In this document: in pieces, positions 8,768 to 18,974 of the stretch
Layout: the number at the start of each line of letters is the position of its first letter
Position numbering within the stretch: the stretch's first letter is position 1
Source of the DNA: Gammaproteobacteria bacterium 45_16_T64
GTDB lineage: Bacteria > Pseudomonadota > Gammaproteobacteria > Pseudomonadales > Ketobacteraceae
Assembly (NCBI GenBank): GCA_002162955.1
Contig: MABD01000030.1
Coordinates: 208,740 to 272,739 of the forward strand
Length of the DNA: 64,000 bases
Direction: 5' to 3'
Notes under the pieces: generated by a model
What the model was told of the DNA's origin: nothing
Seen by the model: the letters and a program-made list of their open reading frames with translations, nothing else
The model's database searches: none
Translations under genes and position numbers: made by a program

Positions 8768-9775
8768 GTGACAATGTTTTTGGGATTCATCTTGATGAGC
8801 GGTGTGATTAGTGGTGCAATCGCTGCCCTAATTGAGAGAGTTATTGGTATGGCAAAGAGTGTTGAAATTCAATCCTGGAAGGAGGCGGTGACCTTTCGTT
8901 TTATCCCTGATTGGATTGCTATTGGCTTTTTATGGTGTATTGCCCAGTTACCCTATGCACTATTGAGGCGCTTTGGTGAAGGTTGTGGTGTTCTCGCTTA
9001 CACGCTTGCTCGTAAGCGTTGTCATATAGTCAGGGTGAATATTGCGCTATGTTTTCCAGAAAAAGCGCCCGCTGAAAGAGAGGAATTGGTAAAACAGTGT
9101 ATCAAAGAAAATATCGTGGGTGTTTTTGAATCAGCCTACGCGTGGTGGGGCAAGCCTGAGAGATTGAAGGCCCAAATTGATGTCATCGGTCAGGAGAATA
9201 TTCAGAATGCGGTGGCTCGAGGAAAAGGGGTGCTTTTGGTGGGGGCGCATTACAGTAACCTGGATTTGGGCGGCGCTCTGATTTCTTATTGCGTACCGAT
9301 CGATGTTACGTATCGACGACATAATAACCCGTTGTTTGATTATTTTATAAGGACTCGGCGGGCACGATTCTTTGATCACATTATAGAACGCTCTGCGTTA
9401 CGCTCTATGCTGAAAGGGCTAAAAAAAGGGCGTGTATTGTGGTACGCGGCAGATCAGGATTATGGAACAAAGCATTCGGTGTTTGCGCCTTTTTTTGGTA
9501 TTGAGGCCGCGACGTTAAATAGTACTGCAAAGTTAGTTCAGATGACGGGAGCTGCTGTTGTGTTTGTGGGTCACCATAGGAAAAGTGATGGCCGTTTCGA
9601 ATTGGAATTCAGTCCTATATTAGAGAACTTTCCTCGTGGAGACGATTGCACGGATGCCGCGCTAATTAACGAAGGTCTGGAGCGACAGATACGAAAGTTC
9701 CCAGAGCAATATATGTGGGTGCACAGGCGTTTTAAGACACAGCAACATGAAAAGAAAGGTCACTTTTACCGTTAA
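8768..9775 (+). CDS. LpxL/HtrB-family lysophospholipid acyltransferase
   Basis: Transfers an acyl chain to a lipid acceptor at the inner membrane. The family includes the late lipid A acyltransferases LpxL, LpxM and LpxP. The HX4D catalytic motif is HYSNLD, in LLVGAHYSNLD; later motifs include YAADQDYG and an EQYMWVHRRFK end typical of the family. Length is 335 residues from the GTG at 8768. An ATG at 8849 (308 residues) with GAGAG eight bases upstream matches the usual family length better, and the longer form would add a second hydrophobic segment. Acyl donor and exact acceptor cannot be decided. Single-gene unit. Confidence 0.88.
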   Translation: MTMFLGFILMSGVISGAIAALIERVIGMAKSVEIQSWKEAVTFRFIPDWIAIGFLWCIAQLPYALLRRFGEGCGVLAYTLARKRCHIVRVNIALCFPEKAPAEREELVKQCIKENIVGVFESAYAWWGKPERLKAQIDVIGQENIQNAVARGKGVLLVGAHYSNLDLGGALISYCVPIDVTYRRHNNPLFDYFIRTRRARFFDHIIERSALRSMLKGLKKGRVLWYAADQDYGTKHSVFAPFFGIEAATLNSTAKLVQMTGAAVVFVGHHRKSDGRFELEFSPILENFPRGDDCTDAALINEGLERQIRKFPEQYMWVHRRFKTQQHEKKGHFYR

Positions 9776-9801
9776 TTACTCCTAAGGAATGGCATGGGGG
9801 C

Positions 9802-10209
9802 TTAATCTATTAGCTCACATAAACCATGTAGCACTAATTCACCGTAACTTACCACGCCAATAATATCCTGTCCTTGTAGTACGGGAGCTACCGACAGTCC
9901 GAAACGGTCAAACAAACGCGCGCAATACCGGACATCCATTTCCGGCGGAACCGTTAACATGGGTTTTGACATTATTTCATAAAGGTTAACCCGCTCAGGT
10001 GCTCTATCTCGTGCCAGTACTTTCTTCGCAATATCAGACAGTAACACCAAGCCATGGGCGTCATGCTCGTGCCGTTTTTTGATGATAACAACCTTGGCCC
10101 CTTGTTGATTCATTAGTTGGATTGCCTGTTTTACCGTTGCCATGCCATCGAGTTCTACAAAGTGGTTGCGCATGACATCTTTGGCTAAAATGTTTTTTCG
10201 AGAAGTCAT
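9802..10209 (-). CDS. CBS-domain protein
   Basis: 135 residues consisting almost wholly of a CBS pair (about 8-65 and 75-132), a module that binds adenine nucleotides such as AMP or ATP and regulates a partner. VMRNHFVELDG and IMSKPMLTVPPEM mark the two repeats. Last gene of a four-gene minus-strand operon; its start overlaps the end of the PII-like gene by four bases (ATGA), so translation is probably coupled. With two integral membrane proteins upstream, a role in nucleotide-dependent gating is a reasonable inference. No enzymatic domain. Confidence 0.88.
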   Translation of the reverse strand: MTSRKNILAKDVMRNHFVELDGMATVKQAIQLMNQQGAKVVIIKKRHEHDAHGLVLLSDIAKKVLARDRAPERVNLYEIMSKPMLTVPPEMDVRYCARLFDRFGLSVAPVLQGQDIIGVVSYGELVLHGLCELID

Positions 10210-10556
10210 AGTAAGTCCTCCATTTCACTTGTTATTTTTTGAACTTGGTGGCTGACGCCCACCGCATCCTCAACATCTAGTTGCAGAGCGATACCGGTAC
10301 CTGGCTTGTCATCGAAATGGCCCGCGCGGCCTATCTCCTCAAGGATATGTCGACTTAAATGCTCCTCTACCAGAAATAACACGACATCCCTTTGTGTTTC
10401 CAAAGTAAGCCCAAAAAATGTCTTAGAGCGTTTCAGGCCCTCCCCACGAGCGTTGTTAATGATGGTCGCTCCGGTCGCCCCTGCTTGCCGAGCGGCGTTC
10501 ATCACCGCATTGGTTTTATCATCCTCTACAAAAACGACGATCATTTTAAAGTGCAT
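10206..10556 (-). CDS. PII-like nitrogen-regulator family protein
   Basis: 116 residues with the small alpha/beta PII fold pattern: MIVVFVEDDKTNAVMNAARQAG (first strand and helix), GATGATIINNARGEG, then a short T-loop-like region and VVLFLVEEHL. It lacks the canonical uridylylated tyrosine context of GlnB/GlnK, so it is a divergent PII-like protein rather than GlnB. A GGAA ribosome-binding site precedes the ATG. It lies 23 bases after a DUF1538 gene and overlaps the CBS gene, so it probably senses a small molecule and controls the membrane pair. Ligand unknown. Confidence 0.82.
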   Translation of the reverse strand: MHFKMIVVFVEDDKTNAVMNAARQAGATGATIINNARGEGLKRSKTFFGLTLETQRDVVLFLVEEHLSRHILEEIGRAGHFDDKPGTGIALQLDVEDAVGVSHQVQKITSEMEDLL

Positions 10557-10579
10557 GATGGTTTCCTTGTTGCTGTGAG

Positions 10580-11407
10580 TTACTGTGAGTCATTGTGTTC
10601 AGACGTTATGGGTTTGATGCTGGTGCTATCTTTCTTTCGATTGAGCCAAAATTGTGACGCTTGGGCGTAGGCCATGACGGATATGATTGGGAAAAGGCTG
10701 GCAAAGGCAATGAGACCAAAGCCATCAATGAGAGGGTTTCTGCCAGGAACGGTCTCCGATAACCCTAAGCCAAGAGCCGCCACTAAAGGCACAGTGACTG
10801 TTGAGGTGGTTACCCCCCCTGAGTCAAAGGCAAGTGGGATAATAAGTTTGGGGGCAATGGTTGTTTGTAAAATGACAATAATATACCCGGCGATGATGTA
10901 CCAATGTATTGGGTCACCTACAACGATGCGATATGAGCCAAGAGTAATGCCCACGGCAACGCCAATGGCAACCGATATTCTTAGTCCAGTCACACTAATT
11001 GCTCCACCAGAGACTTCATTGGCTTTTATTGCGACGGCGATTAACGATGGTTCAGCAATGGTGGTACTAAAACCAATAAGGAATGCGAACAGGTACACCC
11101 AGTAATAATTAAGCCAGTGGCTTCCCTGCTCGCTGGAAGTGAGATTAGCCATTAGGCGTGAGCTTTCAATAAAGATGGGGTCAGTGAGTTGCTCTGCCAT
11201 GAGTCTTCCTAGAGGAAATAGACAGAGTTCTAGCCCAACAAGGAATAGTGCTAACCCAAAGAGGACCCAAAGAAACCCACCCACAACCCGCCCCAAATTA
11301 GGGGGTACTTTTCGAATGACGGCAAATTGAAATCCAAAGATAATGACGACAATCGGAAGGATATCGAGAGCGGTATTCATCAGAGTGTTGATTAAAGTAC
11401 TAATCAT
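10580..11407 (-). CDS. DUF1538 membrane protein, second of pair
   Basis: 275 residues, strongly hydrophobic, about seven transmembrane segments. It carries two conserved stretches: [12 protein letters not shown] in the first half, and [20 protein letters not shown] followed by [17 protein letters not shown] in the second. Both are shared with the neighbour at 11404-12144, which identifies the pair as DUF1538. Its start overlaps that gene's end by four bases. The glycine- and threonine-rich motif inside the membrane resembles a permeation or binding site. Family function is not established to my knowledge; a transport role is inferred from topology. Confidence 0.87.
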
Positions 11408-12144
11408 TGGGTGATCGCCATGCCGTAGGCCATGACAAATATCATGGGTAATAAAGATGCAAAAGCAATGAGCCCAAACCCATCGATCATTGGGTTGCGT
11501 CCTTTAATTGACGACGCTAAGCCAACTCCTAAGGCCGTGACCAGTGGAACGGTAATCGTAGATGTTGTTACGCCACCAGAGTCATACGCTATACCGATGA
11601 TCTCTTTCGGGGCAAAAGCAGTCATGATGACGACCAACACATAACCACCGGCAATTATCCAGTGAATGGGCCACCCTCGTAGGATACGTAATACACCGAT
11701 GACAATGGCCAGCCCAACTGAAAACGCGACGGTATAGCGTAGACCATTGGCGTAAGAGGATTGGGCTTGCACTTCACGTTCAATCATCCCCCCTTCAGCG
11801 GCCACTTTGGCTGCTTCTGCGGCAACGGCGATCAGTGCAGGTTCGGCTACGGTTGTCCCAAAGCCTAAAGAAAAGCTAAATATCAGTAACCAGGTGACAC
11901 TACCTTTGCGTGCGAAGGCGTGTGCAAGGGACTCGCCAATAGGAAATAAGCCTTGCTCCAACCCATGAATAAAGAATGTTAGCCCTAAAATGACGAGAAG
12001 TAGCCCGGCTATGAGCTGGCCATATTCCGGCAAGGGCTGTTTTAACACCACTAACTGGAAGAAAAGTACCACCAGCACAATGGGGGTGAGATCCTTGATG
12101 CTACCGATGGCAGCTTGAAATAGCTTGAATAGGGTTTGATACAA
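11404..12144 (-). CDS. DUF1538 membrane protein, first of pair
   Basis: 246 residues, multi-spanning, paralogous to the next gene. The same signature occurs: [12 protein letters not shown], then [20 protein letters not shown] and [17 protein letters not shown]. It opens the four-gene minus-strand operon whose members overlap or nearly touch. Two non-identical subunits made together suggest a heteromeric membrane complex. The second gene is longer at its C-terminus by a basic cytosolic tail. Substrate unknown. About 180 bases separate it from the first kinase gene on the plus strand, giving space for divergent promoters. Confidence 0.87.
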
Positions 12145-12327
12145 ATTTTAGTTTCCAGGAACAATATGCCATCAACAGTGTAGCAAGTGAATTAGGTTCG
12201 GTGTTGCTATCGATACTCAAAGATTACTGTTTTCAAAAATAATGTGGGTTATTAACAGGTTAACGGGGTGGTAACCGCATATTGAGTGGCTAGTTGAGTA
12301 TGCCTTAAGCTCTGCTGGTAAAAACTA

Positions 12328-15300
12328 ATGCTCAACTATACTGGTAATAGGTACGCTTATAAGTTGCGTAGTCGTTTGTTAGGGGGCGGCAAGTATTGGT
12401 GTTATTGCAGATTGGCGTTAAGTCGCAGGTGTTCTGCAGTGTATAGAGGGCGCAGATTACTGGTATTAATGTGTTGGTTTGTATTCTTGGGGTTGTCCAG
12501 TTCAAGCCTAGCGGACGCCCCTGTGCGATTGTTTACCAAGGACCGGTTGCCGCTTAATCTTCATATGTATGTGCTAGAGGATAAGACGAATGGCCTATCT
12601 ATTGATCAAGTGTCTTCTTCTGCTTATGACGAGCTATTTGTAAAAAATGAGGTGGCACTGCCTAACCTTGGCATAACGACCCATACTTTCTGGATTCGAG
12701 CGACGTTACTTTACCCGGCGACCTACCCAAATGTACAGCCACATAAACGCTGGTATTTGGAAGTTGAAAAGTCGTTGCTAAATGTCGCTGAGCTCTATGT
12801 CCCTGAATTGGATGGAGCCTTTCAGGTAAGTAGCTCTGATCTACGAATACAGTGGGAGCAGCGCCCTGTTAGTCATATTTATAGTGTTTTTCCGATTATA
12901 ACGTATCTAGATGAAGAGCTGACTTTCTATTTAAAGATAGAGAATAAGACATCTTTGAGAATCCCTTTAGTGTTATGGAGTCAAGAAGGCTTTGCAGCTA
13001 AGGTTGCTATAGAAGAGTTTATCTACGGAACCTTCTTTGGTGGGATGCTGATTATGATGATCTACAATCTTTTTGTGTATTCATCTGTGAAAGATGTTGG
13101 TTACCTCTACTATGTGATGTATCTCAGTGGCGTTACCTATTTCGAAATGCTCGAAGTGGGACATGGAAGTATTCATGCGGGCGAAATTTTTCAAGTAGTA
13201 GGTAAAGAATTTATTCCTTTTATTGTATTGTTTTCGCTATTCTCAGGAATACTATTTGCCAGGACATTTTTGGAAACACATAGATTATACAAAAAGATAG
13301 ATACAATATTCTTACTGCTCCTTGGTGCAGTGAGTGTAAGCCTTTTCTCCAATTTTCTTATAAATTTTAAGGATTCTGTTGTTTGGATAACAACAATTTC
13401 ATCTGTTGTCCTTTGCTATATGCTTATCGCCAGTGCGTACGCGTGGTCCAAAGGAAGTGTGAATGCAAAATTCTTTTTCTTCGCATGGAATTTCAATTGT
13501 TTTGGATTCATTATCTATTCATTGATGGTTAACCAGATTCTGCCATCCAATACATTTACCATCATGTCTGCACCTTTGGGCGTATTTTTCGAGGCAGTAA
13601 TACTCTCGTTTGCCCTGGCAAATCGTATAAAAATGGCTCAAAAATCGGCATTGGATTCTGATGACGAAGCGATGAGCAACCTATCTAAGTATCGATCAGT
13701 CTTTGAGAATTCACAGGAGGGTATGTATCAAATGACTCTGCAGGGGGTTATCAAAAATGCTAACCCGTCTATGGCATCGATCATGGGGATGAAGAGTGTC
13801 GGAGAAGTTGTTGAAAATGGGAATAGTGTAGCAGCGAAGCTGTTTGATGATGGTGAAAAGCAATTGCGGATCTTGTTGGATAAAGGCGAGATGATTAATG
13901 AGCTGAAATTCAGCGTGCGCGGGGGGGGGAGTCGATGGTTGCATCATCGAGCTCATCTAAGTTACACCTCTGAGAATGATGTGATTAGTATCAAAGGTGC
14001 AGTGATTGATATGACAGAAATCAAGGAAAAGGAATATGCGATTAAAAAGGGATTTAGAGAGAGAGTTGACAGGAATATAGCCACTGCGGCGGCTTCCGAG
14101 AAGAGTGTGTTTTTATCGATGATGAGTCATGAGATACGAACGCCTCTAGCCGCGATAATTGGATACAGTGAGTCACTGCAAGAGGGTGTGTTTGACAAAA
14201 GTCTGAAGAAAGAATATATCGATACGGTAATGGGGAACAGTCAAAATCTTCTGAAAATAATCAATAATATACTGGATATTTCGAAGCTAGAATCGGGCAG
14301 GTTTGCAGTAGAGAATATTGATGTAGATACCGGTGGATTACTTTTGAATATTGATTGCGAGTTTCAAAAAAAGTCGATCCAAAGAGGCTTACATTTCAAT
14401 GTTGAATTCGCTTCTAGATTACCTTCAAAAATTGAAGGGGATCCTACAAGAATTCGTCAAATTATAACGAATGTGTGTGACAACGCGGTTAATTTTACAA
14501 CGCAAGGGAAAGTGAATGTACATGTATCTTGGTTGAACGATAGTATGTCGATAGTTGTTGTTGATACAGGTGTAGGCGTTTCTGACTTCGCGGTAAGGGA
14601 CTTATTCGAGCTAAGAAATAATGAGGACGGTTTAGATGAAAGGTGTATTAAAGGGGCGGGGCTAGGGTTACCAGTATCAAGGTATCTAGCCAGAATAATG
14701 GGGGGGGATGTTGAATATAAGAAAGGGAAAAGAGAAGGTAGTGAATTTAGTATTAGTTTTCGGGCAAAGAAGAGTGATGGTGCTGATTGGATAGATAGAT
14801 TGCCAGATATAAATGAGATAACCAGTACTGTGGATAAATATAATCAAAAATCCACGAGTAAACCAACGGTGCCAGTGCCAAGCCTAGAGGGAGTCGTACT
14901 GCTTGCTGAGGATAATGTAGTTAATCAAAAGTTGATAAAAAAGTTAATAGAGAAAACAGGCGTGACGGTGTTGCTGGCAAATGATGGCATCGAAGCATGT
15001 GAATGTTGTGATAAAAGGCTTCCCGATGTGGTACTTATGGATATCAATATGCCGAATAGAAATGGACTGGAAGCTACGGCGTATATTCGTGCCCAGGGAT
15101 ATGCCAGACCTATCTTTGCCCTCACTGCGGAATTGGGTCAAAAGGAAGTTGAAGACGCTATTAGTGTAGGGTGTCAGGGTGTTTTATCCAAGCCGATCAA
15201 TAAGAAAGAGATCTATTCGATGTTAGAAAATCATTTGCTTGCGTCGCCTCCCGCTATTGTTTCACTTAACGATGAAAGGGGGGGGGATAAAACGAGTGTT

Positions 15301-15609
15301 AGTGAAATTCATCCACCTGAAAAGTTGAACCCTGAGGTCAATCGATTCACCGATGAATTGCCTCAGATAGAAGTTTTTATGCGTGACCTGATAGAGGCTA
15401 AGAAATGGGGGAGGCTCAGGGAACTAAGCGACCAGATTGTGGAGGTTGCTGATCAATGCTCCCTCCTTGATTTAACGACCTATTGCCGTTGTCTATCTGA
15501 AGCATTGATATCTGATAATGAAGAAGACGTTAATAGATGGCTACCTATCGTAGAAACGGAACTGAACTTGGTTGCGGCCTCAGAGAAAACGAATCATAAG
15601 AAAGCATAA
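12328..15609 (+). CDS. 7TMR-DISM hybrid histidine kinase 1
   Basis: Sensor kinase of 1093 residues. After a hydrophobic export segment near 43-62 come a periplasmic DISM extracellular domain (about 65-220), a seven-helix 7TMR-DISM region (about 228-445), a PAS domain (about 455-575), HisKA with His601 in MMSHEIRTPL, an HATPase domain (about 695-815), a receiver with Asp905 (about 856-975), and an Hpt-like tail (about 1000-1093) lacking the histidine. The F-box region of the ATPase is eroded, although N, G1 and G2 motifs remain. A GTG at 12439 (1056 residues, AGG upstream) gives a more normal signal peptide. Three G tracts of 8-9 bases lie in the coding sequence. Ligand unknown. Confidence 0.9.
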   Translation: MLNYTGNRYAYKLRSRLLGGGKYWCYCRLALSRRCSAVYRGRRLLVLMCWFVFLGLSSSSLADAPVRLFTKDRLPLNLHMYVLEDKTNGLSIDQVSSSAYDELFVKNEVALPNLGITTHTFWIRATLLYPATYPNVQPHKRWYLEVEKSLLNVAELYVPELDGAFQVSSSDLRIQWEQRPVSHIYSVFPIITYLDEELTFYLKIENKTSLRIPLVLWSQEGFAAKVAIEEFIYGTFFGGMLIMMIYNLFVYSSVKDVGYLYYVMYLSGVTYFEMLEVGHGSIHAGEIFQVVGKEFIPFIVLFSLFSGILFARTFLETHRLYKKIDTIFLLLLGAVSVSLFSNFLINFKDSVVWITTISSVVLCYMLIASAYAWSKGSVNAKFFFFAWNFNCFGFIIYSLMVNQILPSNTFTIMSAPLGVFFEAVILSFALANRIKMAQKSALDSDDEAMSNLSKYRSVFENSQEGMYQMTLQGVIKNANPSMASIMGMKSVGEVVENGNSVAAKLFDDGEKQLRILLDKGEMINELKFSVRGGGSRWLHHRAHLSYTSENDVISIKGAVIDMTEIKEKEYAIKKGFRERVDRNIATAAASEKSVFLSMMSHEIRTPLAAIIGYSESLQEGVFDKSLKKEYIDTVMGNSQNLLKIINNILDISKLESGRFAVENIDVDTGGLLLNIDCEFQKKSIQRGLHFNVEFASRLPSKIEGDPTRIRQIITNVCDNAVNFTTQGKVNVHVSWLNDSMSIVVVDTGVGVSDFAVRDLFELRNNEDGLDERCIKGAGLGLPVSRYLARIMGGDVEYKKGKREGSEFSISFRAKKSDGADWIDRLPDINEITSTVDKYNQKSTSKPTVPVPSLEGVVLLAEDNVVNQKLIKKLIEKTGVTVLLANDGIEACECCDKRLPDVVLMDINMPNRNGLEATAYIRAQGYARPIFALTAELGQKEVEDAISVGCQGVLSKPINKKEIYSMLENHLLASPPAIVSLNDERGGDKTSVSEIHPPEKLNPEVNRFTDELPQIEVFMRDLIEAKKWGRLRELSDQIVEVADQCSLLDLTTYCRCLSEALISDNEEDVNRWLPIVETELNLVAASEKTNHKKA
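13921..13929 (+). repeat. Homopolymeric G9 tract in kinase 1
   Basis: Nine consecutive G encode consecutive glycines in RGGGS near residue 532, before the kinase core. A one-base slip would end the protein before HisKA, leaving only the sensor. Confidence 0.85.
14700..14707 (+). repeat. Homopolymeric G8 tract in kinase 1
   Basis: Eight consecutive G lie in the ATPase region (IMGGDVEY). A length change here would remove the receiver and tail. Confidence 0.8.
15278..15286 (+). repeat. Homopolymeric G9 tract in kinase 1
   Basis: Nine consecutive G in the linker after the receiver domain (ERGGD, residue about 983). Slippage here would change only the Hpt-like tail. Confidence 0.85.
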
Positions 15610-15854
15610 ATGCTAGACCGTTAGCTTATCGAGTTAGCTCTGTTATTCCTTCTTTGTACATAGAATGTCGATTTCTATGGTTCCTGTTATTAGCTATAAA
15701 AATTATCCTTAAAAAAGCTATTGCAGGGGAATAACTTGTGCTTTGTCAGTGTTAACTATACTAAAGTAAGGGAACTAACTCCTTATTAATGTTAGAAAAT
15801 TTGGCGGGGTGAGGGTAATCGTATCTCTAGCAGTCTTCATTGGAGCGTGTGTTC

Positions 15855-18800
15855 GTGCGTATCCATAAAATAATAATTACGATTTTTTTTGCATTATTAC
15901 CTTTCCTTTCATGTGCAGCTATTTTCGCCGAAGAGGCGGAGCAGGGTGTTCGTTTGTTTTCGAAAGGTCAGTACCTGCTAACGCCACATATGTTGTATTT
16001 TGAAGATGTCAGTAATGATCTAACAATAGATCAAATAGCATCATCGAAATATGCATCCGAATTTGTTAAAAATAATAACCCTATTCTTAATACAGGGATT
16101 ACAACGTCGACATATTGGGTGAAATTCACGTTGGATTATCCTGATGCATACCCCAATGAAACCGTGTTGAAGCGATGGTATTTGGAGGTGGGAGGAAGCC
16201 AGCTAAACGAGGTTGAACTTTTTATTTCTGAGTATGATGGAATATACGAAGTGAAAACGTCGGATATGAGGGTCGATTTCAGCGATCGCGATATTTCACA
16301 TGCGAATAGTGTTTTTCCGCTAGATATCGGCATCGGTCAGAAAATCGACCTATACCTTAAAATAAAGAGCAATACTTTATTAAAATTCCCCCTATTCTTG
16401 TGGTCTCCAGAGGAGTTTATTCACAAAGTAGCGATAGAAGAATTCTTATACGGTGTTTTGCTTGGAAGCATGATCATATTGCTTGTCTATAATCTGTTTT
16501 TGTATTTCTCCATGAAGGATGTGAGCTATTTATACTATGTGCTCTATTTGTTTGGTATCGTGGTTTTTGAATTCCTAGAGTTAGGGCACGGGGTTATCCA
16601 TGTTGAGAATATAATAGGAACGTTTAATAAAGAGTTTATTCTATATTTTATTTGGGAGAGTTGTATAGCGGGCTCTATGTTCTCAAAGACATTTATGGAA
16701 TTGAATCGTTTTCACCCGAGAATAGATAAGATAGTTAACGTATTTATCGCTGTAGCATTGATTAGTTTTTTTCTGGTTCCATTTTCTGAATACAATATTT
16801 CGGCGCTATGGAATCTAATCTATATGTCGATATTTCTTCCTCTATTTTTAATGATGATATCTTATTGTTGGATTACCGGTAATGAAAACGCTAAGTATTT
16901 TTGTTTGGCGTGGTTGTCAAATGTCGCAGGTTTGATGATATTCTCGGGTGTTACTTATCAAATAATCCCCGCAACGCCACTGACATTGGCAGCAACGCCT
17001 ATCGGAATTTTAGTCGAGGCGGTGACGTTATCACTCGCGCTTGCAAATAGAATTAAGAATGAACAAGCGCTAGCGTTGACAGCGGATAAACAGGCGATGG
17101 GGTATTTGGAGAGGTATCAGTCTGTATTTGATAACGCATTGGATGGTATGTATAAAATGTCGTTGTCGGGGACGGTAGTTAGTGCTAACCCTGCATTGGT
17201 GAAGTTGTTTGGCTTTGAAAGCACTCAGGATATCCTCCGTTGCAAGGATATTGCCAGTAGAGTTTTTGAAGATACCGATAGGCAATTTGGAGAAATGATA
17301 GAGCATGGAGTGTCGATTAACTATTTCTCATTTATTATGCCAGGGAAAAAGCAGGTATGGGCAAGTCATAGTGCTCGATTAATCGTTGGGGAGTCTGGCC
17401 TCTATAGTCATATCGAGGGCTCAGTTACCAATATTACGCAAATAAAATTGAAGGAGTTGGCGATAAAGGATAAGGAAAACGAAAAAACGGAGCGGGAAAT
17501 TGCAGAAGCTTCAACGTCGGCAAAAAGCGAATTTCTAGCGAATATGAGTCATGAAATACGCACGCCGCTAAATGCTATTATTGGATTCAGTGAGTCTCTC
17601 AAAGAACCTGCATTATTAGGTAGAGAAAGAAAAAATGCAATAAAATTGGTCTTTGACAGTAGCCATAATTTGCTAAGTCTTATTAATGACATCTTGGACT
17701 TTTCGAAGATTGAAGCTGGTATGCTCATGATAGAGCAGGTTCCGATAAATTTGGTGACCTTTGTTGAGAAAATTAAGAGTGAGTTTCATGAGGAAGCCAA
17801 GAAAAAGAAACTTAGATTTGATGTGGTTTATCGTTACCCCATTCCGGAAACGGTGGTTAGTGACCCTCTACGTATAGCGCAAGTACTCCAAAATATCTGT
17901 TCCAATGCGCTGAAATTCACCGAGAAAGGTAGTGTGATATTAGCGGTGTCGTGGGAATACGATAGTGAGCGTCTTTGCTTTGAGGTGATCGATAGTGGTG
18001 TGGGGATGAGTAATAAGGTTAGGGATAACCTGTTTCACGTGTTTGACCAGGCTGATACCTCTTCAACTAGACAATACGGTGGTGCAGGACTTGGCTTGGC
18101 GATATCCCGGAGATTGGCCAGCCTAATGAATGGAACCATCGATGTTCTTAGTGAGCATGGCAAAGGCAGTGTGTTTACATTTGTTGTAGGGCAGTGCCTC
18201 GAAGGCAAAACGGTGTGGCTAGATAGAAAACCGGCACCACAGAAAATGACCAAACGTTCGGAAGTCGTCATTCCTAAGCTTTTTGGTACAGTGTTGTTGG
18301 CGGAAGATAATGTAGTGAATCAGAAGCTTATTGAGCGAATCATCAAAAAAACAGGGATTAACGTTGTGATTGCTAATGATGGTATCGAAGTGTGTGAAAA
18401 AACCCTGCAAATTCACCCTGACCTGATCTTGATGGACATCAATATGCCTAGAAGAGATGGGGTTGAAGCAACGAAATACCTTATAGAGCAAGGCTGCGAT
18501 ATACCTATTTACGCATTAACCGCAGAGCAAGATTCTGTGGAAATAGATAAAGCACTGTCTGCGGGATGCATGGGGTGTATTTCTAAGCCTTTGAATAATA
18601 AAGAATTGTATTCTAGTTTGGAGAGGCATTTGGCAACCCAGCCTTCACTAATACCCGCAAAACCTGAACAGATTCGCGAACCTGGCTTACAAGTGCAGAA
18701 GAGAGCAGTGATGCGTCGGTTTGCGAATGACTTACCGAGAATTCAAGAAATGATGATTGAGTTAGTTAAGAGTGAAAATTGGGCTAAGCTTAGAGAGTTA

Positions 18801-18974
18801 GCCAGTGAAGTGAGCGAAACCGCTATCTCATTTCAATTAGAGGGTTTGACTAAAAAAAGTCAGCAGTTGGAGCAAGCGCTTAAGAATGGCGATACTCAAG
18901 ATGTGAGCCACTGGTTACCCAAGATAGTAAAAGAGTTTAGTCTGGTTGTTGATAGTATTGATGAGAAACACTGA
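15855..18974 (+). CDS. 7TMR-DISM hybrid histidine kinase 2
   Basis: Paralogue of the kinases on either side with the same order: signal peptide, DISM extracellular domain, seven-helix region, PAS, HisKA (MSHEIRTPL), complete HATPase including FDQAD and GAGLGLAIS, receiver (LMDINMP) and an Hpt-like tail. Counting from an upstream TTG at 15840, the phospho-His is about 571 and the receiver Asp about 866. I prefer the GTG at 15855 because GGAG sits nine bases before it and MRIHKIIITIFF is then a normal signal peptide. In the tail the position expected for the phosphotransfer His is not His (RELASEVSETA). About 245 bases separate it from kinase 1. Confidence 0.91.
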   Translation: MRIHKIIITIFFALLPFLSCAAIFAEEAEQGVRLFSKGQYLLTPHMLYFEDVSNDLTIDQIASSKYASEFVKNNNPILNTGITTSTYWVKFTLDYPDAYPNETVLKRWYLEVGGSQLNEVELFISEYDGIYEVKTSDMRVDFSDRDISHANSVFPLDIGIGQKIDLYLKIKSNTLLKFPLFLWSPEEFIHKVAIEEFLYGVLLGSMIILLVYNLFLYFSMKDVSYLYYVLYLFGIVVFEFLELGHGVIHVENIIGTFNKEFILYFIWESCIAGSMFSKTFMELNRFHPRIDKIVNVFIAVALISFFLVPFSEYNISALWNLIYMSIFLPLFLMMISYCWITGNENAKYFCLAWLSNVAGLMIFSGVTYQIIPATPLTLAATPIGILVEAVTLSLALANRIKNEQALALTADKQAMGYLERYQSVFDNALDGMYKMSLSGTVVSANPALVKLFGFESTQDILRCKDIASRVFEDTDRQFGEMIEHGVSINYFSFIMPGKKQVWASHSARLIVGESGLYSHIEGSVTNITQIKLKELAIKDKENEKTEREIAEASTSAKSEFLANMSHEIRTPLNAIIGFSESLKEPALLGRERKNAIKLVFDSSHNLLSLINDILDFSKIEAGMLMIEQVPINLVTFVEKIKSEFHEEAKKKKLRFDVVYRYPIPETVVSDPLRIAQVLQNICSNALKFTEKGSVILAVSWEYDSERLCFEVIDSGVGMSNKVRDNLFHVFDQADTSSTRQYGGAGLGLAISRRLASLMNGTIDVLSEHGKGSVFTFVVGQCLEGKTVWLDRKPAPQKMTKRSEVVIPKLFGTVLLAEDNVVNQKLIERIIKKTGINVVIANDGIEVCEKTLQIHPDLILMDINMPRRDGVEATKYLIEQGCDIPIYALTAEQDSVEIDKALSAGCMGCISKPLNNKELYSSLERHLATQPSLIPAKPEQIREPGLQVQKRAVMRRFANDLPRIQEMMIELVKSENWAKLRELASEVSETAISFQLEGLTKKSQQLEQALKNGDTQDVSHWLPKIVKEFSLVVDSIDEKH

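What the first reader, a model, noticed from the sequence alone, without database searches (positions are those of the whole stretch)
9802..12144. Four-gene DUF1538 pair with PII-like and CBS proteins
Two paralogous polytopic proteins with the same GGVTTSTxTVPLV and [11 protein letters not shown] motifs are encoded as a pair overlapping by four bases, followed at 23 bases by a PII-like protein and, with another four-base overlap, a CBS protein. Sequence shows the pairing and coupling. By family knowledge, PII and CBS modules sense small molecules and nucleotides. I infer a heteromeric transporter or channel gated by two sensors, a system with no established function that I know of.
Basis: partly seen in the sequence, partly recalled or inferred. 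Interest (0 to 1): 0.62.

Follow-up and report, generated by a model that had tools for sequence, protein, structure and literature searches.

The report
PII-linked UmpAB-like antiporter operon
Four genes in a row encode a two-part membrane protein related to a known sodium/potassium-proton exchanger plus two small sensor proteins that travel with it in many bacterial genomes, which suggests that the exchanger is switched on and off by a sensor of the cell's state.

Summary
In detail: four minus-strand genes, two DUF1538 membrane proteins, a PII-like protein and a two-CBS protein, with the stated overlaps. In 80 loci of named genomes, all 77 complete DUF1538 pairs are followed by a PII-like gene and 76 by CBS (one contig ends), while the commonest flanking gene family reaches 9 of 58 loci. 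In one locus from each of 120 genomes of a phylum sample, 111 of 115 complete, uncut DUF1538 units are followed by a PII-like gene; 64 then have CBS, 21 a second PII-like gene. The PII link recurs on Bacillota replicons, so PII looks like the core partner and CBS an accessory. 'No established function' is wrong: a DUF1538 pair was described in 2017 as UmpAB, a heterodimeric Na+(Li+,K+)/H+ antiporter. The window proteins score below NCBI's strict cut-offs. Best reading: a cation/proton antiporter set by a PII-like protein at the membrane, as GlnK acts on AmtB or SbtB on SbtA, with CBS as a second input. Binding, ligand and ion are untested. New here, as far as I could search: the coupling, and proteins with three diverged PII domains beside fused UmpA-UmpB chains.

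The parts
11404..12144 (-). UmpA-like DUF1538 membrane protein, 246 aa, TTG start
   Evidence: Pfam DUF1538 238.9 bits; NCBIfam UmpA 380.4 bits, cut-off 490; AF2 pLDDT 90.2, all helical
10580..11407 (-). UmpB-like DUF1538 membrane protein, 275 aa
   Evidence: Pfam DUF1538 223 bits; NCBIfam UmpB 344.5 bits, cut-off 500
10206..10556 (-). PII-like protein, 116 aa
   Evidence: Pfam P-II 36.5 bits, cut-off 25; AF2 model matches PII structures, 1ufl_B Z 13.0, rmsd 4.2, 88 aligned
9802..10209 (-). two-CBS (Bateman module) protein, 135 aa
   Evidence: Pfam CBS 55.1 bits, cut-off 24, two stretches
11539..11577 (-). [13 protein letters not shown] motif of the UmpA-like protein (just after invariant D188)
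11452..11484 (-). [11 protein letters not shown] motif of the UmpA-like protein
10781..10819 (-). [13 protein letters not shown] motif of the UmpB-like protein
10694..10726 (-). [11 protein letters not shown] motif of the UmpB-like protein

Best explanation
The four genes form one unit (overlapping or close genes) for a regulated cation/proton antiporter. The two DUF1538 subunits (UmpA-like, UmpB-like) form the membrane pump as a heterodimer and exchange Na+ (Li+, K+) for H+. The PII-like protein, expected to form a trimeric ring as PII proteins do, docks on the cytoplasmic face of the pump and blocks or releases it according to a bound small molecule, most likely an adenine nucleotide or another energy or carbon signal. 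The CBS protein joins the complex and adds a second nucleotide input; in other lineages a second PII-like chain takes that place. Shown here: gene order, families, near-universal co-inheritance. Published for a relative: antiport and heterodimer. Inferred: antiport by this pair, docking, gating and ligand.
For: NCBIfam puts each protein nearest to its own subunit of UmpAB (380.4 and 344.5 bits against 190.9 and 194.5 for the other subunit). A UmpAB pair restored salt tolerance of E. coli KNabc, co-immunoprecipitated and gave Na+(Li+,K+)/H+ antiport in vesicles (PMC5484666: abstract, cloning section, discussion). PII-like gene next to 77 of 77 complete pairs in the named set and 111 of 115 complete uncut units in the phylum sample; flanking genes are not conserved (commonest family 9 of 58 loci); 100 of 105 genomes with the PII subfamily also have DUF1538, out of 398. 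Same link on five Bacillota replicons. PII fold of the model. PII proteins gating transporters by direct binding is established for GlnK-AmtB and SbtB-SbtA, and CBS modules regulate transporters (passages of PMC10710835, PMC13249358).
Against: Both window subunits score below the NCBI equivalog cut-offs (380.4 of 490, 344.5 of 500), and no genome searched reached the UmpA cut-off. The antiport assay is one study from one group, in E. coli, without the PII or CBS protein; the paper's main text holds neither 'PII' nor 'CBS'. Four complete pairs in the phylum sample have no PII-like gene beside them (L219, L256, L258, L290), nor has L319. The PII-like protein lacks the canonical B-loop and C-loop motifs of the genome's own PII proteins, so nucleotide binding cannot be read off. 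PMC10710835 remarks that PII control seems restricted to trimeric transporters, whereas UmpAB is reported as a heterodimer. No binding or interface was tested here.
Confidence: 0.5

Rival explanations
1. The pair is a PII-gated transporter, but its real substrate is not Na+/K+ against H+ (for instance a cation-coupled metabolite or anion); the antiport seen with UmpAB in E. coli is a side activity.
For: Well-known PII-gated transporters carry nutrients: ammonium (GlnK-AmtB), bicarbonate (SbtB-SbtA) (passages). The window pair is below the UmpAB equivalog cut-offs. The UmpA model shows no clear match to any solved antiporter.
Against: The one functional study of the family found antiport and growth rescue. 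DUF1538 appears in a list of features linked to growth pH, among Na+/H+ antiporter and K+ transport families (PMC13255231, one passage).
Confidence: 0.2
2. The direction of control is reversed: the DUF1538 pair is the sensor and sequesters or releases the PII-like and CBS proteins, which act on a target elsewhere in the cell.
For: AmtB sequesters GlnK at the membrane (reference listed in PMC10710835). In three genomes of family f94 a PII-CBS pair lies apart from DUF1538 (L286, L287, L288), and some genomes carry further PII-like genes away from DUF1538, near dusB-ntrB-ntrC-like or argB-like genes.
Against: No target gene recurs around the operon: flanking families reach at most 9 of 58 loci. 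A transport activity is published for the pair.
Confidence: 0.13
3. The pair is a gated channel rather than an antiporter, comparable with CBS-regulated MgtE.
For: CBS protein in the operon; MgtE membrane domain among the weak fold matches (2zy9_A Z 5.0, rmsd 3.5, 97 aligned; 4u9l_A Z 5.5, rmsd 3.6, 99 aligned).
Against: These Z values are tied with unrelated helical proteins; CBS is missing from many units; antiport was measured for the relative.
Confidence: 0.1

Closest known systems
UmpAB of Halomonas zhaodongensis, two-component Na+(Li+,K+)/H+ antiporter (PMC5484666; NCBIfam NF041627 and NF041628)
   Same: Two overlapping genes for homologous DUF1538 subunits; each window protein is nearest to the matching subunit model
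   Different: Window proteins are below both equivalog cut-offs; the paper mentions no PII or CBS protein; whether the Halomonas operon has them was not found out here
GlnK-AmtB and SbtB-SbtA: transporters gated by a PII or PII-like protein (passages)
   Same: Transporter gene and small PII-fold protein in one operon, conserved together
   Different: Unrelated transporter family; two non-identical subunits instead of one trimeric protein; canonical PII motifs missing; extra CBS or second PII chain; binding unproven
Transporters with built-in CBS modules, such as MgtE or CBS-bearing ABC importers (passages)
   Same: CBS module tied to an ion or solute transporter
   Different: Here CBS is a separate small protein and is missing beside many related units

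Membership tests
DUF1538 (PF07556) | Pfam score above the curated cut-off | tested here: met
   238.9 and 223 bits against 22.6
UmpAB antiporter (NF041627/NF041628) | Paired homologous genes, each nearest to its own subunit model | tested here: met
   P0004 UmpA 380.4 against UmpB 190.9; P0003 UmpB 344.5 against UmpA 194.5
UmpAB antiporter (NF041627/NF041628) | Score above NCBI's equivalog cut-off | tested here: not met
   380.4 of 490 and 344.5 of 500 bits. So it is not filed as UmpAB, only as UmpAB-like
UmpAB antiporter (NF041627/NF041628) | Na+(Li+,K+)/H+ antiport by a heterodimer | not testable with these tools
   Published for the Halomonas pair only
PII superfamily (Pfam P-II) | P-II score above cut-off and ferredoxin-like PII fold | tested here: met
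   36.5 bits against 25; 1ufl_B Z 13.0, rmsd 4.2, 88 aligned; Foldseek best E 1.8e-6
Canonical GlnB/GlnK | T-loop YRGAEY, B-loop GDGK and C-loop RIRTGE as in the genome's own two PII proteins (meaning of the motifs recalled) | tested here: not met
   Replaced by a shorter loop, PGTG and GVSHQ in the alignment with L271 and L272
PII superfamily (Pfam P-II) | Homotrimer and small-molecule binding | not testable with these tools
   No assay; single-chain model only
CBS (Bateman) module | Two CBS repeats above cut-off | tested here: met
   55.1 bits against 24, two stretches
PII-gated transporter (GlnK-AmtB kind) | Conserved gene linkage of transporter and PII-fold protein | tested here: met
   77 of 77 complete pairs in the named set; 111 of 115 complete uncut units in the phylum sample
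PII-gated transporter (GlnK-AmtB kind) | Direct, ligand-dependent binding to the transporter | not testable with these tools
   No complex prediction or binding assay on hand
MgtE-type transmembrane domain | Shared membrane fold | tested here: inconclusive
   4u9l_A Z 5.5, rmsd 3.6, 99 aligned; 2zy9_A Z 5.0, rmsd 3.5, 97 aligned; tied with unrelated helical proteins

The most novel reading that the evidence does not exclude
DUF1538 transporters are a whole class of PII-controlled ion exchangers in which the regulator has moved away from the symmetric PII trimer: one PII chain in split UmpA/UmpB systems, two diverged PII genes or a two-domain PII in fused systems, and in some a single chain with three PII domains that have long been distinct (mean identities 37-57% repeat by repeat between proteins, 10-22% between repeats of one protein). 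An asymmetric PII ring would match a transporter built of two non-identical halves and could let each PII face read a different signal.
Probability: 0.3. Interest if true: 0.78.

Novelty: new variant of a known kind. Interest (0 to 1): 0.56.

Why it matters
DUF1538 is common: 126 of 398 genomes in the phylum sample, and hits to the UmpA model in 126 of 369 genomes in the class sample. Yet I found one functional study of the family and Pfam still calls it 'unknown function'. If the PII link is physical, a widespread pump gains a regulator and a likely kind of signal, PII control is extended to cation homeostasis, and there is a ready test system. The three-domain PII proteins would make the question of PII symmetry testable on one polypeptide.

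Tried and rejected
Internal repeat in UmpA (hhalign of five pairs of sub-alignments): nothing, best probability 1.2%. Fold match for UmpA in the PDB: no Foldseek match at E 0.001 or below, best VIA Z 6.1 over 68 residues; phmmer of UmpA against PDB sequences gave none up to E 10, and of the PII-like protein only weak ones, best E 0.12 to 1ufl. RNA family as a hint to the ligand: no Rfam match at gathering score in the window nor in 14 related loci, 7 of them plasmid loci. Promoter scan 9700-12400: 4 sites against 4.4 expected, so no claim. Locating the characterised Halomonas pair by NCBI's UmpA cut-off: 0 of 293, 0 of 116, 0 of 44 and 0 of 369 genomes reached it; whether that umpAB is itself followed by PII and CBS genes stays open.

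Exceptions and limits: L219, L256, L258 and L290 have a complete pair and no PII-like gene next to it; L319 has two DUF1538 frames 165 bases apart and none next to them. In L193 (chosen from the order sample) the pair has its PII-like gene upstream, not downstream. Dropped before the count of 115: four units cut by contig ends and three single-domain entries (two of L319; L314, which does have PII and CBS). The 120 phylum loci are one from each of 120 of the 126 positive genomes; other DUF1538 copies of the same genomes were mostly not fetched. The PII subfamily is not exclusive to DUF1538: 5 of 105 PII-positive genomes have no DUF1538 match and several others carry a second PII-like gene elsewhere. 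Presence counts are not corrected for relatedness of genomes.

Papers: searches that could have shown a printed link of DUF1538/UmpAB with PII or CBS were made; for tandem PII. I saw none in the listings. Seen: PMC5484666 outline with abstract, two sections and passages; passages only of PMC6516651, PMC12093952, PMC13255231, PMC10117731, PMC13249358 and PMC10710835. Only open PubMed Central papers are held; a 2024 review of PII-like proteins by Selim and Alva, cited in PMC13249358, was not seen.

Full report
What is there. The finding lies wholly on the minus strand. In gene order: a UmpA-like DUF1538 protein (12144-11404, TTG start), a UmpB-like DUF1538 protein (11407-10580), a PII-like protein (10556-10206) and a two-CBS protein (10209-9802). 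Pfam confirms the families. The two membrane proteins are 43% identical over 257 columns. The held assembly of this genome has no other DUF1538 match, and its two canonical PII genes lie on other contigs.

What the membrane pair is. NCBIfam places each protein nearest to its own subunit of a named system, the Na,Li,K/H(+) antiporter UmpA and UmpB (380.4 and 344.5 bits; cut-offs 490 and 500). The founding paper (PMC5484666; abstract, cloning section and discussion read) found umpAB of Halomonas zhaodongensis in a screen for salt tolerance in E. coli KNabc, showed co-immunoprecipitation of the subunits and pH-dependent Na+(Li+,K+)/H+ antiport. But the window proteins do not reach the equivalog cut-offs and are filed as UmpAB-like only. 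Two acidic residues, E101 and D188 of UmpA, are invariant in 13 of 13 aligned rows that include distant fused forms. D221 is invariant in the 66 nearer UmpA and UmpB rows but not in the 13. E101 and D188 are my candidates for ion coupling (inference). The AF2 model of UmpA is confident (pLDDT 90.2) but no solved fold stands out.

Are the sensors really linked? Named genomes: a scan with a UmpA alignment kept the best 80 of 579 confirmed loci. Of these, 77 hold a complete pair; all 77 are followed by a PII-like gene and 76 then by CBS, the contig ending in the other. Two more loci end shortly after umpA, and in one the frame runs off the contig and gave no hit. PII and CBS overlap by exactly four bases in 66 of the 76. 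Control: in the 58 loci with at least 2.5 kb on both sides, up to three frames per side were clustered; the commonest flanking family occurs in 9 of 58. The block is conserved against changing surroundings.

Phylum sample. DUF1538 occurs in 126 of 398 genomes. I fetched one locus from each of 120 of the 126. They hold 122 units; without four cut by contig ends and three single-domain entries, 115 remain, and 111 are followed by a PII-like gene. Next comes CBS in 64, a second PII-like gene in 21, neither in 25, and a contig end in 1. A profile of the PII subfamily (E 1e-15 or better) hits 105 of the same 398 genomes, and 100 of the 105 carry DUF1538 (odds ratio about 205, not corrected for relatedness). 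The 26 genomes with DUF1538 but no such PII hit are largely those with long fused forms, whose PII-like proteins are more distant and are found by a broader profile. In three genomes of family f94 a PII-CBS pair lies apart from DUF1538 (L286-L288).

Across phyla. A protein search of plasmid records gave 9 with a match. I opened 7; each has DUF1538 followed by a PII-like gene, annotated as 'P-II family nitrogen regulator' in five and found by profile in two without annotation. In one of the seven, a Chelativorans plasmid, the first DUF1538 gene is short. Five of the seven are Bacillota; there one chain of about 500 residues holds both DUF1538 domains and the PII-like protein has two PII domains. 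I saw no CBS gene in the annotation of the five annotated stretches.

Variants. (a) umpA, umpB, PII, CBS: the window's form. (b) The same without CBS. (c) umpA-umpB fused to about 500 residues, then PII and CBS. (d) A longer fusion of about 570-650 residues, then two PII-like genes. (e) A long fusion, then one protein with three PII domains: four proteins with three profile hits (L035, L037, L196, L200) and one with two (L191). In a tree of 114 DUF1538 domains the N-halves of form (c) go with UmpA (86/46, weak) and the C-halves with UmpB (100/96) (the window's own proteins were not in it, a congener was). In form (e) each repeat resembles the same repeat of the other proteins (means 47, 57 and 37%) more than its neighbours in its own chain (means 10 to 22%), so the three domains have long been different. 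Two loci carry a split and a fused system side by side with three PII-like genes (L184, L185).

The sensors. The AF2 model of the PII-like protein (pLDDT 76.5; residues 37-46 below 50) matches PII structures (1ufl_B Z 13.0, rmsd 4.2, 88 aligned; the 50 rows shown run from Z 13.0 to 11.6). Against the genome's own two canonical PII proteins it has a shorter T-loop, PGTGIA in place of GDGKIF, and no RIRTGE; the functional meaning of these motifs is recalled. Its own invariant residues include R37, G38, E39, G40, F47, G49, D57, E64, R69, G86, G88, D97, G100 and Q104 (57 of 57 rows). The ligand cannot be read from known motifs. In the CBS protein M13, D50, G53, P83, V110 and G118 are the same in 85 of 85 relatives.

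How it most likely works. A heterodimeric antiporter sits in the membrane; the PII-like protein, probably a trimer, docks from the cytoplasm and sets its activity according to a bound metabolite; CBS adds another input. This follows from linkage, fold and the precedents GlnK-AmtB and SbtB-SbtA (passages of PMC10710835 and PMC13249358). PMC10710835 remarks that PII control seems restricted to transporters that work as trimers. UmpAB either assembles as a trimer of heterodimers or breaks that rule, and the asymmetric PII proteins of forms (d) and (e) would fit the second idea. None of this was tested by a complex model or an assay here.

Verdict. The transport half is known. The coupling to a PII-like protein as the core partner, its near-universality and the three-domain PII proteins I did not find in the open literature searched. 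I rate it a new variant of a known kind, PII-controlled membrane transport.

Noticed in passing
L035:5331-6557, L037:5399-6661, L196:3021-4226, L200:3193-4446: Proteins of 401-420 residues with three PII domains in one chain, each directly downstream of a fused DUF1538 gene; the three domains are strongly diverged.
   Followed up: yes
L184:4142-9103, L185:4041-9024: A split and a fused DUF1538 system side by side, with three PII-like genes and two CBS genes in one cluster.
   Followed up: partly
L278:103-4026, L282:4930-9039, L285:2072-4128: PII-like genes of the same subfamily away from DUF1538: next to genes that look like dusB-ntrB-ntrC (L278, L282), or beside an SH3-like and an argB-like gene (L285); names by eye from the translations.
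   Followed up: partly
window 12328-15609 and 15840-18974: Two long tandem genes that look like paralogous membrane-bound hybrid histidine kinases, divergent from the operon (reading by eye).
   Followed up: no
L035:8520-9518: A frame that looks like a Ca2+/Na+ exchanger lies upstream of a fused DUF1538 gene on the same strand (reading by eye).
   Followed up: no
G001 (same genus as the window's genome): No DUF1538 match although rated 96% complete, while G000, G002, G003 and G004 have two matches each.
   Followed up: no
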